DNA of 40,866 nt from positions 1 to 40,866 of the IMG/VR virus record IMGVR_UViG_3300037297_000059; one strand, given 5' to 3'. Source of the stretch: a virus. The translations under genes and the position numbers were made by a program. This document shows, piece by piece, positions 5,543-17,725 of the stretch. The notes under the pieces were generated by a model. It did not search any database. It saw only the letters and a program-made list of their open reading frames with translations, and had not been told where the DNA came from. How positions within the stretch are numbered: position 1 is the first letter of the stretch; each line of letters begins with the position of its first letter.

Positions 5543-6871
5543 TTAACTCACTTTCCATGTATCAGCCCTAATATTTTTTTCCTGTCCATATCTTACACTA
5601 GCTGAACCATCTGGCTCGTCAGGATATTCATAAATTATTTTATCTGTTTTCTTGTCCTTCTCATATTCATATGTTTTAAAATCTACAGCTAAGTTAGGAC
5701 ATCTTTTTGGATCAATAATAATTTCGGCTCTATCCTGAACCCATTTTATACCATGATTTTTACTATCTGGACCTTTTTTTGTTTTAATTGCATTTAAACC
5801 GAATTTTTGCATCTCTTTTATTGTTCTTGGATCTTCATTATCAACCCAAATTAAGAAATTTTTTGATTTTTGCTTTATTTTTGTAAATAATAACCAATTC
5901 GAAGCATGATATAAATATACTTCATCAAATATATATAATTTTTGATTAGATTTATCATAAAAACTTTCACTATAACAACTCGCATGTGAATAACCCAAAT
6001 CAACACCGCGCTGTATTTGTGAAAATTTTGAAATTTCTTCGTCGGTAATTTCTCTTAATGTCAAGACACCTGTCTTTGTTCTTGGATCGTATTCTGGATA
6101 AATTTCTAAACCTTCGCCAGTCTCTTCACCTAAATACATATGTCTATATTTTTTAGGGTTTATCTTTTTAATTAATTCAGCTTCATTAATAAAACTTTCG
6201 CCTAACCATTCTGGCGGTGCTTCTAAATAAGTACTATGATGTATACGCGTTTTTGTATCAATACTTTGTCTTTCAAGTTTTTTAAATTCTCTAACCTGGT
6301 CATTAACCCAACTTGAAATACTTGCAGGTGGATTATACATATAATTTACTATCGCTTCATCTCCACCCCTAAGTAATGATTGATTTATAGAACGTATTTC
6401 ATCCATTCCAACAAATTCGGTTAATTCTTCAAAAATAATATGTTTACAATAACCTTTTTTAAATTTTATACTTTTTATCTTTTGATAATCGCCTTGATTC
6501 GCCGCACCTCTAAATAAAATAGTGTTTTGTGGATTTTTTGAAGTGCCTGTATAAATTCTCATCGGATTTGTTGTATAATGCCAGATATCATTAAGACCTA
6601 ACATATCAATAGCCCACAAGAAATTTGTAAATACACTATCCTTTATTGTATCTTTAACTTTTCTTAACCCTAAGGCATGGGTATTTTTACCTTGTAAAAA
6701 ATCTCTGGTTAAATCAAAAATTGTATATAAATGGACATAAGAACTTTTTAAACTACCTCTACCACCTTTAAACCAATAATGTAAATGTTTTTTTCTTTCC
6801 ATGTCCCAAAAAATCTTATAATATGCTGGCCCAATTAATTTAGCTAAACTAATATTAATTACGTTATTCAA
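5543..6871 (-). CDS. terL: Terminase large subunit
   Basis: 442 aa. ATPase domain: Walker A-like FKGGRGSLKSS at about 35-45, Walker B HIIFEEL at about 144-150. Nuclease domain: RGVDLGYSHAS (about 290-300) with the metal-binding Asp, then WVDNEDPRTI (about 346-355), equivalent of the D-x-A-D/EP-xSI motif, here DNEDP. The end reads DGSASVRYG. Length is standard for Terminase_3-type proteins. It translocates and cuts the DNA concatemer at the portal. It overlaps the small subunit by 4 bases. Confidence 0.95.
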   Translation of the reverse strand: MNNVINISLAKLIGPAYYKIFWDMERKKHLHYWFKGGRGSLKSSYVHLYTIFDLTRDFLQGKNTHALGLRKVKDTIKDSVFTNFLWAIDMLGLNDIWHYTTNPMRIYTGTSKNPQNTILFRGAANQGDYQKIKSIKFKKGYCKHIIFEELTEFVGMDEIRSINQSLLRGGDEAIVNYMYNPPASISSWVNDQVREFKKLERQSIDTKTRIHHSTYLEAPPEWLGESFINEAELIKKINPKKYRHMYLGEETGEGLEIYPEYDPRTKTGVLTLREITDEEISKFSQIQRGVDLGYSHASCYSESFYDKSNQKLYIFDEVYLYHASNWLLFTKIKQKSKNFLIWVDNEDPRTIKEMQKFGLNAIKTKKGPDSKNHGIKWVQDRAEIIIDPKRCPNLAVDFKTYEYEKDKKTDKIIYEYPDEPDGSASVRYGQEKNIRADTWKVS

Positions 6872-8371: not shown

Positions 8372-9139
8372 TTAATCTTCAACCTCTTCATCAATAAAAT
8401 CACCAGGATAATTATTTTCTATCATTTTTTCTTTTAAGTTTTCTTCATAATAATTTTCTGGTAAAATAGTAACATTTTTATTTTCTGAACTTTCAGGGAC
8501 CGGCGGCGCTTGTTTGTAATCTCCCTCAACTTTGTCTACATTATGTAATTTTACAGCTTCTTCAATTGGTATTTCATGCCCTGTATAACTTGGATGACTT
8601 TCAATTGGATTTTCATTCATTGGTTTTTCTGGTATTGGTATAGGCGGCTGTTTTGCTAAATCTTGCATTATTTTATTTAATAAATTTTTTGATAATTTAA
8701 TTTCATATGGTGAAATCATATAAAACATTTCTTTTAAATCTTTTAACATTAAATCAAATTTTTCATTATCTTTTAAATTATCACTTTCATCATTATAATA
8801 CTTAAACAAATGCTCTTCTTCGGGGAAACCATTTTTTTTAGCCGCCTCAACTCTAATTTCCATCAATAAATCTGTAATATCTTTAAGTTTCCATTTTTTG
8901 TTTTCAACTTGTCCAGACATTATAACTCTTAATTCACGTAATTTGTTACTTAATTCAGGATACTCATTAATAGTTTCGCGTTCAGCTTCGGCAATATGAC
9001 CAGTTGCTAGCCAACGATGTCCTAAATACCCCTGTAAAGCTTCAACACATAAAACATATGCTTGTGATATATGTTTAGATGCGCAAAATAGACAATCTAC
9101 CGCTTGAATATTGTTATCACTTAAAATATTTTTTTCCAT
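8372..9139 (-). CDS. Conserved phage protein with CxxC and HRWLA motif
   Basis: 255 aa. The N-terminal domain has CLFCASKHISQAYVLCVEAL then GYLGHRWLATGHIAEAERE (about 16-55), a pattern I associate with a widespread but uncharacterised family of phage proteins with a C-x2-C followed by helices ending in H-x-WLAxGHxAEAE. The C-terminal half is Pro- and Glu-rich and probably disordered (about 165-255), ending in an acidic tail. It has a weak own promoter at 9187-9215. Function unknown; conserved His/Cys hint at metal binding. Confidence 0.65.
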   Translation of the reverse strand: MEKNILSDNNIQAVDCLFCASKHISQAYVLCVEALQGYLGHRWLATGHIAEAERETINEYPELSNKLRELRVIMSGQVENKKWKLKDITDLLMEIRVEAAKKNGFPEEEHLFKYYNDESDNLKDNEKFDLMLKDLKEMFYMISPYEIKLSKNLLNKIMQDLAKQPPIPIPEKPMNENPIESHPSYTGHEIPIEEAVKLHNVDKVEGDYKQAPPVPESSENKNVTILPENYYEENLKEKMIENNYPGDFIDEEVED

Positions 9140-9186
9140 TTACTAGTTAACTCCTTTTAATTTATTTTTATTAACTTACATTAATA

Positions 9187-16062: not shown

Positions 16063-16329
16063 TTAACCAAAAAATAATTTTAATATTCCTAATATTCCAG
16101 AAAAAAATACAGTTATAATTCCAGCATAACCAGTTAAGCGAGCCGGTGTTAACTCGAATTTTTTTATTTGCAATTTTTTATTACAATTATCTTGATTTTT
16201 TTGACACATTTCTTTAGTTATAACAATTTCATTTAATTTGTCTATTTTATTTTCAACCCTTGTTACATCATTTACAAGTACAGTTAATAATTTATCTGTA
16301 TAATTTAATTTATCAAAATCTTTTTCCAT
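16063..16329 (-). CDS. Holin-like membrane protein (XhlA type)
   Basis: 88 aa. An amphipathic N-terminal coiled coil (LNYTDKLLTVLVNDVTRVEN, about 9-28) is followed by two cysteines (C40, C48), and one C-terminal membrane helix (LTGYAGIITVFFSGILGILK, about 65-84). N-terminal coil with a single terminal anchor is the layout of XhlA-like hemolysin/holin accessory proteins. With the amidase three genes downstream it is the best holin candidate in the genome. A TGATATAAT promoter element is 30 bases upstream. Confidence 0.65.
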   Translation of the reverse strand: MEKDFDKLNYTDKLLTVLVNDVTRVENKIDKLNEIVITKEMCQKNQDNCNKKLQIKKFELTPARLTGYAGIITVFFSGILGILKLFFG

Positions 16330-16359
16330 TAATCTCGCTTCCTTTTCATTTTATTTTTA

Positions 16360-16368
16360 ATTATATCA
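16360..16368 (-). promoter_or_regulatory. Putative late promoter of the lysis genes
   Basis: Minus strand TGATATAAT, ten bases after the tRNA-locus terminator and 30 bases before the holin-like gene. Same arrangement (terminator, then extended -10) as before the terminase genes. Confidence 0.6.
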
Positions 16369-16376
16369 CGTTAATC

Positions 16377-16414
16377 AAAAAAGACCTCAAACGGCTAAGC
16401 AAAAGGTCTTTTTA
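16377..16414 (-). terminator. Intrinsic terminator of the RNA locus
   Basis: 10-bp stem (AAAAAGACCT / AGGTCTTTTT), 16-base loop; on the minus strand the stem ends in six T. It closes the gene-free transcription unit that begins near 17382 and insulates the lysis promoter. Confidence 0.85.
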
Positions 16415-16522
16415 AAGTATTATAGTAGTACCCAAATTATTATAATTTTATATAGAATAATAATATAATTTTTTTACCGTTTTGGTATATACGGAAGGAA
16501 AAATTATTTGAAAACCTATCAA

Positions 16523-16595
16523 TTGCGGCGACCGGATTCGAACCGATACCCGTTTTGGTTATGAGCCAAACAATCTGCCGTTGATATACGCCGCG
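16523..16595 (-). tRNA. tRNA-Met(CAT), initiator-like
   Basis: Full cloverleaf: acceptor CGCGGCG/CGCCGCA, D arm TATC/GATT with loop AACGGCA, anticodon stem TTTGG/CCAAA with loop CTCATAA, T arm ATCGG-TTCGAAT-CCGGT, discriminator A, no encoded CCA. Position 1-72 is a C-A mismatch, 11-24 is A-U, and two of the three anticodon-stem G-C pairs are kept; these are hallmarks of bacterial initiator tRNA. Elongator Met or lysidine-modified Ile are the alternatives. Confidence 0.85.
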
Positions 16596-16599
16596 TCAA

Positions 16600-16714
16600 G
16601 TGGGGACTGTGTATATTGCGATTTCCCCACGCCACCGCGTTTACCGATACACTCAGCCATAAAGCTTGATATCTAGGTCATTGCTTTACGCGTCCTTACA
16701 CCTAGTTGGACGAA
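16600..16714 (-). other. GC-rich structured segment between tRNAs
   Basis: 115 bases without an ORF. Minus strand features: a 7-bp hairpin GTGGGGA/TCCCCAC (17-base loop), nested stems CGCGT/ACGCG and AAAGC/GCTTT, CTAGGT/ACCTAG, and GTGTAT/ATACAC as a longer-range pair. The text TGGCTGAGTG recalls the D arm of serine tRNAs, but no matching T arm is present. It may be a domain of the larger RNA or a decayed class II tRNA. Confidence 0.4.
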
Positions 16715-16786
16715 TTGCCGTAATCGGATTTGAACCGATATTTCCATCCTATATAGGCCAGCGACTCCCAAATTGTCTATACGGCG
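16715..16786 (-). tRNA. tRNA-like element, anticodon arm not standard
   Basis: Acceptor CGCCGTA/TACGGCA (six pairs, C-A at the top), D stem GAC/GTC with GGG in the loop and T arm ATCGG-TTCAAAT-CCGAT with its perfect stem are all good. The middle reads CTGGCCTATATAGGATGG, which gives only an interrupted stem with a 6-base TATATA loop, so I cannot assign an anticodon. It may be a tRNA pseudogene or a tRNA-mimicking domain of the surrounding RNA. Confidence 0.4.
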
Positions 16787-16883
16787 ACCATATACAAAAA
16801 CACTGTTATAATATAATACGTTTGATATATTATGCTGATTTTATTTTTTTGGAGAAAAACCAGCAAAAACACAACATTTTTTA

Positions 16884-16954
16884 CGACCAATAGTGGAATT
16901 GAACCACTAACTTTAGATTGACAATCTAATATGTTTCCATTACACCAATTAGTC
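16884..16954 (-). tRNA. tRNA-Asp(GTC)
   Basis: Complete cloverleaf: acceptor GACTAAT/ATTGGTC (with one T-G pair), D arm GTGT/ACAT with GG in the loop, anticodon stem TTAGA/TCTAA and loop TTGTCAA, T arm AGTGG-TTCAATT-CCACT, discriminator G as required for Asp. No encoded CCA. First tRNA of the leftward RNA locus. Confidence 0.92.
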
Positions 16955-17063
16955 AAGTGGAAAATTTATTATTAGATTTAAATGTGAAATAAATTTTCCG
17001 AAATAAACACATTACTAATTAATTAGATTAACATTATATTTTTACGTCTTACATGCTATGATA

Positions 17064-17294
17064 TGACGGGTTTTTTTCTCTTTTCTCCATTGGTTATGAA
17101 AGGTAACAATTTCTAAAACCTCCAAAGGGTTTACCAGTAAACCGACCATCGGACCTCACTAAGATTATATAAGTTTGCCTACTCTACCCGTAACCCTGGA
17201 CACTTTCCCAAAACTTATATAATTTATTAGTACGTTCTGCCACTTAAACTATAAACCATATTTTTGGTAATAGTTACCGGACTATTACCAAAAA
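17064..17294 (-). ncRNA. Structured RNA core
   Basis: Contains a 13-bp hairpin at 17261-17294 (loop TTACCGGA), a 13-bp stem (ATTATATAAGTTT at 17164-17176 with 17211-17223) enclosing a 34-base GC-rich loop, and a GGTTTAC/GTAAACC hairpin at 17128-17143. GGTTT at 17128-17132 can pair either with AAACC at 17116-17120 or with AAACC at 17139-17143, so two exclusive folds exist. No start codon with ribosome binding site and no ORF above 30 codons. Family not recognised. Confidence 0.5.
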
Positions 17295-17388
17295 AACACC
17301 AAAAAACAAACAAATTACATCAATAAACACGCTTATGACTTCAAAAAAGAATTTAAGTACTCTACTATTTGTAAACAAGCACAACCCA

Positions 17389-17417
17389 ATTTTAACACAA
17401 CTATTCATTAAAATCAA
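17389..17417 (-). promoter_or_regulatory. Promoter of the RNA/tRNA locus
   Basis: Minus strand: -35 TTGATT, 17-base spacer, -10 TAAAAT preceded by TG (extended -10). The expected start is near 17382; no protein gene follows for 1 kb. Confidence 0.7.
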
Positions 17418-17452
17418 TGTTTGTATATAAAAATACAAAATAAAATTTACTC

Positions 17453-17489
17453 AAAAGTGTAAAATAACATTAAAAGTGTAAAATTACAC
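17453..17489. promoter_or_regulatory. Operator-like repeats upstream of the RNA locus
   Basis: Two direct copies of AAAAGTGTAAAAT (17453-17465, 17472-17484) spaced 19 bases, the second forming a dyad GTGTAAAATTACAC (17476-17489). They lie 36 bases upstream of the -35 box of the RNA-locus promoter, a fitting place for an activator or repressor. Confidence 0.45.
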
Positions 17490-17527
17490 ATTATGCAATA
17501 TATATCTAACATTTTTAATACTAAATA

Positions 17528-17725
17528 TTATGCTTTTAATTTAAAATCAATCAATTTTAGTATCTCATTTAAATAATACACTGTAGTATGAGTAGTTGAC
17601 ATATCTATATTTAACATTCTACATATAAAATCTACTTTACCTCTAATAGTAATATTTCTTTCAGTATTATCAATATTTAAATCACTGATAATTTTATCTA
17701 AAACTAAATGCAACATTGTTCCCAA
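17528..17725 (-). CDS. Small hypothetical protein
   Basis: 65 aa from TTG 17725, seven bases after GGAGGG (the GTG at 17740 overlaps that site). MGTMLHLVLDKIISDLNIDN, then ITIRGKVDFICRMLNIDMST; two helical halves with a central Arg/Lys patch. Last gene of the early leftward operon. Family not recognised. Confidence 0.55.
   Translation of the reverse strand: MGTMLHLVLDKIISDLNIDNTERNITIRGKVDFICRMLNIDMSTTHTTVYYLNEILKLIDFKLKA

What the first reader, a model, noticed from the sequence alone, without database searches (positions are those of the whole stretch)
16377..17417. Kilobase noncoding RNA unit with embedded tRNAs
A promoter (extended -10, 17-base spacer) and an intrinsic terminator enclose about 1 kb without protein genes. 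It holds several long hairpins, GC-rich islands, tRNA-Asp, an initiator-like tRNA and a tRNA-like element. Its ends can pair (17357-17368 with 16422-16431). Known giant phage RNAs (GOLLD, ROOL) also sit next to tRNAs, but no established family could be recognised, so this may be a new large structured RNA.
Basis: partly seen in the sequence, partly recalled or inferred. Interest (0 to 1): 0.8.

Follow-up and report, generated by a model that had tools for sequence, protein, structure and literature searches.

The report
New tRNA-coupled double-pseudoknot phage RNA
A small phage gene cluster of transfer RNAs hides a previously undescribed, roughly 115-letter folded RNA that recurs in at least nine metagenomic phage sequences, each time starting about ten letters after a tRNA or a tRNA look-alike, so it is a new RNA family whose job is not yet known.

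Summary
The 1-kb 'giant RNA' is not supported: no Rfam large-RNA family matches, folding energy is unremarkable, the promoter and end-pairing are within chance, and most of the sequence has no detectable counterpart in related phages. But a 111-nt piece between the third tRNA-like element and tRNA-Met (16599-16709, minus; 'element B') is a new structured RNA family. Nine phage contigs carry it, including phages with no detected shared proteins. It folds into two successive pseudoknots; 10 of 30 pairs show changes on both sides, 96% of cells pair, and no shuffle matched this (0/500). A model built without the window finds it at 66.9 bits (E 4e-12). In all nine a tRNA or tRNA-like acceptor/T-arm lies 10-14 nt upstream of the first stem. 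Those elements range from normal tRNAs to forms with greatly enlarged anticodon arms. Most likely B is a stable small RNA cut from a tRNA precursor by tRNA-processing enzymes; its target is unknown. Known large phage RNAs (GOLLD, ROOL) are neighbours in style, not relatives.

The parts
16599..16709 (-). element B, conserved core of the new double-pseudoknot RNA (whole spacer between the tRNA-like element and tRNA-Met is 16596-16714)
   Evidence: CM built without the window: 66.9 bits, E 3.9e-12; covariation
16673..16705 (-). stem a of pseudoknot 1: CTAGGT 16700-16705 with ACCTAG 16673-16678 (6 bp)
   Evidence: 3 of 6 pairs change on both sides in homologues, 100% of cells paired
16658..16690 (-). 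stem b of pseudoknot 1: CGTAAAGC 16683-16690 with GCTTTATG 16658-16665 (8 bp, crosses stem a)
   Evidence: 4 of 8 pairs change on both sides; not used to fit alignment A2
16609..16652 (-). stem c of pseudoknot 2: GTGTAT 16647-16652 with ATACAC 16609-16614
   Evidence: invariant except one U-A to G-C change in L098
16618..16638 (-). stem e of pseudoknot 2: GCGGT 16634-16638 with ATCGC 16618-16622
   Evidence: 97.5% cells paired, one double change
16600..16630 (-). stem d of pseudoknot 2: GTGGGG 16625-16630 with CCCCAC 16600-16605 (hairpin loop pairs downstream)
   Evidence: 90% cells paired; L098 keeps it with a different sequence, AGCTG/CAGCT
16715..16786 (-). tRNA-like element directly 5' of element B (sound acceptor, D and T arms; 8-nt anticodon loop on a poor stem)
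   Evidence: Rfam tRNA 33.3 bits; homologue in L098 with enlarged anticodon arm
16523..16595 (-). tRNA-Met (CAT), directly 3' of element B
   Evidence: ARAGORN, Rfam 50.4 bits
16883..16955 (-). tRNA-Asp (GTC)
   Evidence: ARAGORN, Rfam 65.2 bits
17128..17257 (-). element A: probable tRNA-like element with a hugely enlarged anticodon arm (13-bp stem 17164-17176/17211-17223)
   Evidence: resembles L202 8981-9098, 1 of 300 shuffles as good; stem; T-arm degenerate, so tentative
17261..17294 (-). 14-bp hairpin
   Evidence: z -4.4
16959..16999 (-). 12-bp hairpin just 5' of tRNA-Asp
   Evidence: inverted repeat I14; z -2.3
16834..16864 (-). hairpin 5' of the tRNA-like element
16378..16413 (-). intrinsic terminator
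   Evidence: z -3.8
17389..17417 (-). promoter-like site, not better than chance

Best explanation
The locus is a phage tRNA operon that carries a new small structured RNA. SHOWN: element B (about 111 nt) is a conserved RNA of two consecutive pseudoknots, each a hairpin whose loop pairs with the sequence just downstream, and it lies at a fixed short distance 3' of a tRNA or tRNA-like acceptor/T-arm in every one of nine phage loci. INFERRED: B is transcribed as the 3' trailer of that tRNA. RNase Z cuts after the discriminator base (no CCA is encoded) and, where a tRNA or tRNA-like element follows (window, G26/G27 group), RNase P cuts before it. This would release B as a free, pseudoknot-protected RNA of about 118 nt. 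The variable D and anticodon regions of the flanking tRNA-like elements suggest that their acceptor/T-arm, which the processing enzymes read, is what matters rather than decoding. GUESS: the free RNA acts in trans during infection, for example on the translation machinery or on a host nuclease or defence factor.
For: Nine homologues with 30 pairs in 5 helices: 96% of cells paired, 10 pairs with double changes, 0/500 shuffles reach any measure, slid controls 33-48%. The same result on an alignment fitted only to stems a, c, e, so pseudoknot stems b and d are tested independently of the model structure. A model without the window finds the window at E 3.9e-12 and L199, also left out, at 1.6e-20. 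Acceptor end to stem a is 10, 11 or 14 nt in 9 of 9. The upstream elements are of different kinds: Met in L202, Gln in L113, a canonical-length one in L199, enlarged forms in L098 and the G26/G27 group. A T-arm plus acceptor too short to hold D and anticodon arms follows B in L085, L083, L190 and L204. Carrier phages L098 and L199 share no detectable protein with the window in the 11-12 kb compared (L098's only hit is the antisense reading of the RNA itself).
Against: No transcript data. RNase Z and RNase P cleavage is inferred from position only. Four loci (L202, L098, L199, L113) have no recognised tRNA right after B (L113 is cut by the contig end). Effective diversity is modest (about five clades). 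Stem c hardly varies and stem d shows few clean covarying columns because W and L098 need a one-base shift. No target of B is known.
Confidence: 0.55

Rival explanations
1. Element B is a cis-acting block to 5'-3' exonuclease: RNase Z cutting at the tRNA 3' end leaves a 5'-monophosphate end that RNase J1 would attack, and the pseudoknots stop it, protecting the RNA that follows (often the lysis mRNA).
For: Hairpin loop pairing downstream, fixed distance of 10-14 nt from the predicted RNase Z cut, indifference to which tRNA precedes. A folded viral xrRNA is known to stop bacterial RNase J1 in vitro (PMC5760640).
Against: In the window a tRNA-Met and a terminator follow, so no mRNA is left to protect; in L098 the next gene appears to have its own promoter-like sequence. 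No ring-like xrRNA fold was tested.
Confidence: 0.2
2. The whole kilobase is one large ornate RNA of the GOLLD/ROOL style with tRNAs embedded.
For: Shared architecture of hairpins, tRNA-like elements, B and a hairpin or terminator in the window and the G26/G27 group; one homologue (L199) has a tRNA-like element inserted inside a loop of B, as tRNAs are in some GOLLD linkers (PMC12286853).
Against: No Rfam match; unremarkable fold energy; no alignable sequence outside B and the tRNA-like elements; end pairing within chance.
Confidence: 0.1
3. Element B is an insulator or folding aid in a tRNA operon: it keeps neighbouring tRNAs from misfolding or pauses RNA polymerase, with no function as a free RNA.
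For: It always follows a tRNA-type element.
Against: Strict loop sequence conservation (AUAUCAA and AAYG) and spread across unrelated phages argue for a specific partner or fold.
Confidence: 0.15

Closest known systems
[quoted passage not shown]
   Same: Phage or prophage structured non-coding RNA near tRNAs, with one studied example directly downstream of a Met-tRNA; tRNAs sometimes inside its linker (PMC12286853).
   Different: Many members exceed 800 nt; element B is about 111 nt with its own pseudoknot fold; no GOLLD match at E <= 5.
ROOL RNA
   Same: Phage or prophage RNA near tRNA islands with several pseudoknots (PMC12286853).
   Different: Much larger; no ROOL match.
Viral tRNA-like structures with adjacent pseudoknots (plant RNA viruses)
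   Same: tRNA-like element next to consecutive pseudoknots (recalled, not tested).
   Different: Here the tRNA-like element is 5' of the pseudoknots and in a DNA phage; the order is reversed in the plant viruses.
Exoribonuclease-resistant RNAs (xrRNA)
   Same: Hairpin whose loop pairs downstream; one can stop RNase J1 (PMC5760640).
   Different: No sequence match; ring topology not shown; function untested.
tRNA gene clusters of phages
   Same: The locus contains ordinary tRNA-Asp and tRNA-Met.
   Different: Extra conserved RNA; tRNA-like elements with enlarged or missing D/anticodon parts.

Membership tests
GOLLD (Rfam) | Match to the Rfam covariance model | tested here: not met
   cmscan of all 4227 families, no match up to E 5 in 16300-17600
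GOLLD (Rfam) | Phage location near tRNAs | tested here: met
ROOL (Rfam) | Match to the Rfam covariance model | tested here: not met
OLE and HEARO | Match to the Rfam covariance model | tested here: not met
tmRNA | tRNA-like domain plus tag reading frame | tested here: not met
   ARAGORN default tmRNA search found none; no Rfam match
tRNA (RF00005) | Score above the gathering threshold | tested here: met
   16884-16954, 16523-16595, 16715-16786; element B and element A do not match
Group I intron | Match to RF00028 | tested here: not met
   none in the window, although the model finds one in L061
xrRNA | Blocks a 5'-3' exoribonuclease | not testable with these tools
   needs a biochemical assay
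Element B family (new) | Five helices a, b, c, e, d in double-pseudoknot order and a tRNA-type acceptor 10-14 nt upstream | tested here: met

The most novel reading that the evidence does not exclude
A new class of phage RNA: a double-pseudoknot RNA made only as a fusion to a tRNA or to tRNA look-alikes kept for their processing signals rather than for decoding, and acting in trans against host translation, nucleases or defence.
Probability: 0.3. Interest if true: 0.85.

Novelty: new variant of a known kind. Interest (0 to 1): 0.68.

Why it matters
Few phage non-coding RNA families are defined by covariation, and those near tRNAs (GOLLD, ROOL) still have no known function. Element B is small, easy to synthesise and probe, and its fixed spacing from tRNA-type elements gives a testable rule for how it is made. 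The tRNA look-alikes with enlarged or missing anticodon arms also question the assumption that phage tRNA genes always serve decoding.

Tried and rejected
A kilobase RNA as one fold: rejected on energy, Rfam and lack of conservation outside B. End-to-end pairing: within chance. Promoter: within chance. Group I intron, tmRNA: no match. A permuted tRNA in 16600-16710 (GTAAAGC before GCTTTAT): considered, then explained by the pseudoknot stem b, which covaries. Direct DNA search of INPHARED phages with the whole region and of phages and plasmids with B: no match. Pattern search of 84,980 genomes: 40 hits, none with the structure; CM search of samples of one bacterial phylum and two of its orders (392-398 genomes each, partly overlapping): none, but without a positive control and with strict filters. 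Nearest syntenic relatives G001, G002 and G023 lack B. Element A against the G27 and G23 leader regions: not significant. A weak partial second copy in L202 (9233-9292, E about 0.9) was not counted as a member.

Full report
What is there. The window is a 40,866-base virus record coding a siphophage: terminase, portal, tape measure, helicase, primase, endolysin. On the minus strand, between a small gene ending at 17528 and an 88-aa gene starting at 16329, lies a non-coding stretch. The 88-aa gene resembles in position and weak similarity the gene before the endolysin in relatives. The stretch holds tRNA-Asp, tRNA-Met and a third tRNA-like element at 16715-16786 that passes the Rfam tRNA threshold. 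It ends in a sound terminator (16378-16413).

The promoter-like site is one of 20 where shuffles give 22. The claimed end pairing is matched by 8% of shuffles. Sliding-window folding energies in the region are ordinary (mean z -0.46 against -0.28 for the contig). No family of Rfam 15 other than tRNA matches convincingly, even at E <= 5. The nearest relatives found by terminase (G001, G002; 63% identity) have a non-coding gap at the same place, but no tRNA and no similar sequence.

Finding the conserved part. Further relatives were found through the helicase and a tail protein. One, G026 (L083), has at the same site a stretch with a 67%-identity match to window 16603-16736. Reading it showed a shared motif, CAATGAC-NNN-GATATCAAG, flanked by segments that differ in sequence but keep complementarity. 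G027 (L085) showed the same. Pattern scans of 2.9 million viral contigs plus a structure filter gave further members: L202, L098, L199, L204, L190 and L113 (cut by its contig end). With the window, G026 and G027 this makes nine.

Structure. Element B (window 16599-16709) has five helices: a (6 bp), b (8 bp), c (6 bp), e (5 bp), d (5-6 bp), in the order a-b-a'-b' and c-e-d-e'-c'-d'. These are two successive pseudoknots, each a hairpin whose loop pairs just downstream. On nine sequences 96% of cells pair, 10 of 30 pairs have changes on both sides, and none of 500 shuffles reaches any of the five measures; sliding the partner by 1-3 columns drops pairing to 33-48%. Because the first alignment was a plain sequence alignment and the second was fitted only to a, c and e, the pseudoknot stem b (4 pairs with double changes) is tested without having been imposed. 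Stem d needs a one-base shift in the window and in L098; L098 keeps it with an unrelated sequence (AGCTG/CAGCT). The single-stranded linker AUAUCAA is invariant. A model built from seven members without the window or L199 finds the window at 66.9 bits, E 3.9e-12, as the only significant hit in the contig, and L199 at E 1.6e-20.

The tRNA link. In all nine loci a T-arm plus acceptor stem precedes B, with 10, 11 or 14 nt between the acceptor end and stem a. The element is a normal tRNA in L202 (Met) and L113 (Gln; ARAGORN), of canonical length in L199, and unusual elsewhere. In the window it has an 8-nt anticodon loop on a poor stem. In L098 its homologue has a longer anticodon region, while a 20-odd-base D/anticodon segment is nearly identical to the window's. 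In L204 the anticodon arm is replaced by a long hairpin that folds as a clean extended cloverleaf (z -2.5). In L085, L083 and L190 it is longer still and its acceptor is imperfect. Just 3' of B, the window has tRNA-Met, and L085, L083, L190 and L204 have a T-arm with acceptor but only 36-37 nt from acceptor start to T-loop, too short for D and anticodon arms. L199 has another tRNA-like element inserted inside a loop of B. The window's element A (17128-17257) is probably one more tRNA-like element with an enlarged anticodon arm; its only support is resemblance to L202 8981-9098, so it is tentative.

Distribution. L098 and L199 come from phages with no detected protein similarity to the window in the 11-12 kb compared, and L113 shares only the endolysin and a fragment of a structural protein. 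G001, G002 and G023 lack B. No match was found in INPHARED phages or plasmids by blastn, among 40 pattern hits in 84,980 genomes, or in samples of one bacterial phylum and two of its orders by CM search. The last searches had no positive control and used strict filters. The host is unknown.

How it probably works. Shown: conserved fold, conserved position, many kinds of upstream tRNA-type element. Inferred: co-transcription with the tRNA, and release by RNase Z (no CCA is encoded) and, where a tRNA-type element follows, RNase P, both of which read mainly the acceptor/T-arm (established knowledge). The product would be about 118 nt in the window. Unknown: the target. The main rival is a cis-acting block to RNase J1, suggested by topology and by the finding that a viral xrRNA stops RNase J1 (PMC5760640); it fits poorly with the window, where tRNA-Met and a terminator follow B.

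Comparison with the known. GOLLD and ROOL are phage or prophage RNAs often near tRNA islands, many GOLLDs exceed 800 nt, one studied GOLLD lies downstream of a Met-tRNA, and tRNAs can sit in its linker (PMC12286853). Element B shares the neighbourhood, not the family: the covariance models do not match and the size differs several-fold. The literature searches made here turned up no description of such an RNA, but only open-licence papers were searched.

Noticed in passing
L202:8981-9098 (+): tRNA-like element with good acceptor, D-arm and T-arm but roughly 46 extra nt in the anticodon arm, just before a normal-length tRNA (9110-9181) and the holin-like gene.
   Followed up: partly
L085:9106-9165 (-); also L083, L190, L204: Mini tRNA-like element directly after element B: acceptor and T-arm with no room for D and anticodon arms.
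   Followed up: partly
L199:93-175 (+): A tRNA-like element is inserted inside the first loop of element B, so the loop tolerates a tRNA-sized insert.
   Followed up: partly
L202:9233-9292 (+): Weak partial match to the first pseudoknot (18 bits, E about 0.9) upstream of the holin-like gene, possibly a degenerate second copy.
   Followed up: no
L082:5500-5600 (-), phage G023: Unannotated tRNA-like element with a long variable arm at the syntenic site; no element B there.
   Followed up: no
L061:6166-6409 (+): Group I intron (Rfam RF00028, 69 bits) in a distantly related phage.
   Followed up: no
L059:1348-5850 (+): Four tRNA genes spread among short ORFs upstream of an endolysin, with further tRNA-like sequences around 5640-5760.
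   Followed up: no
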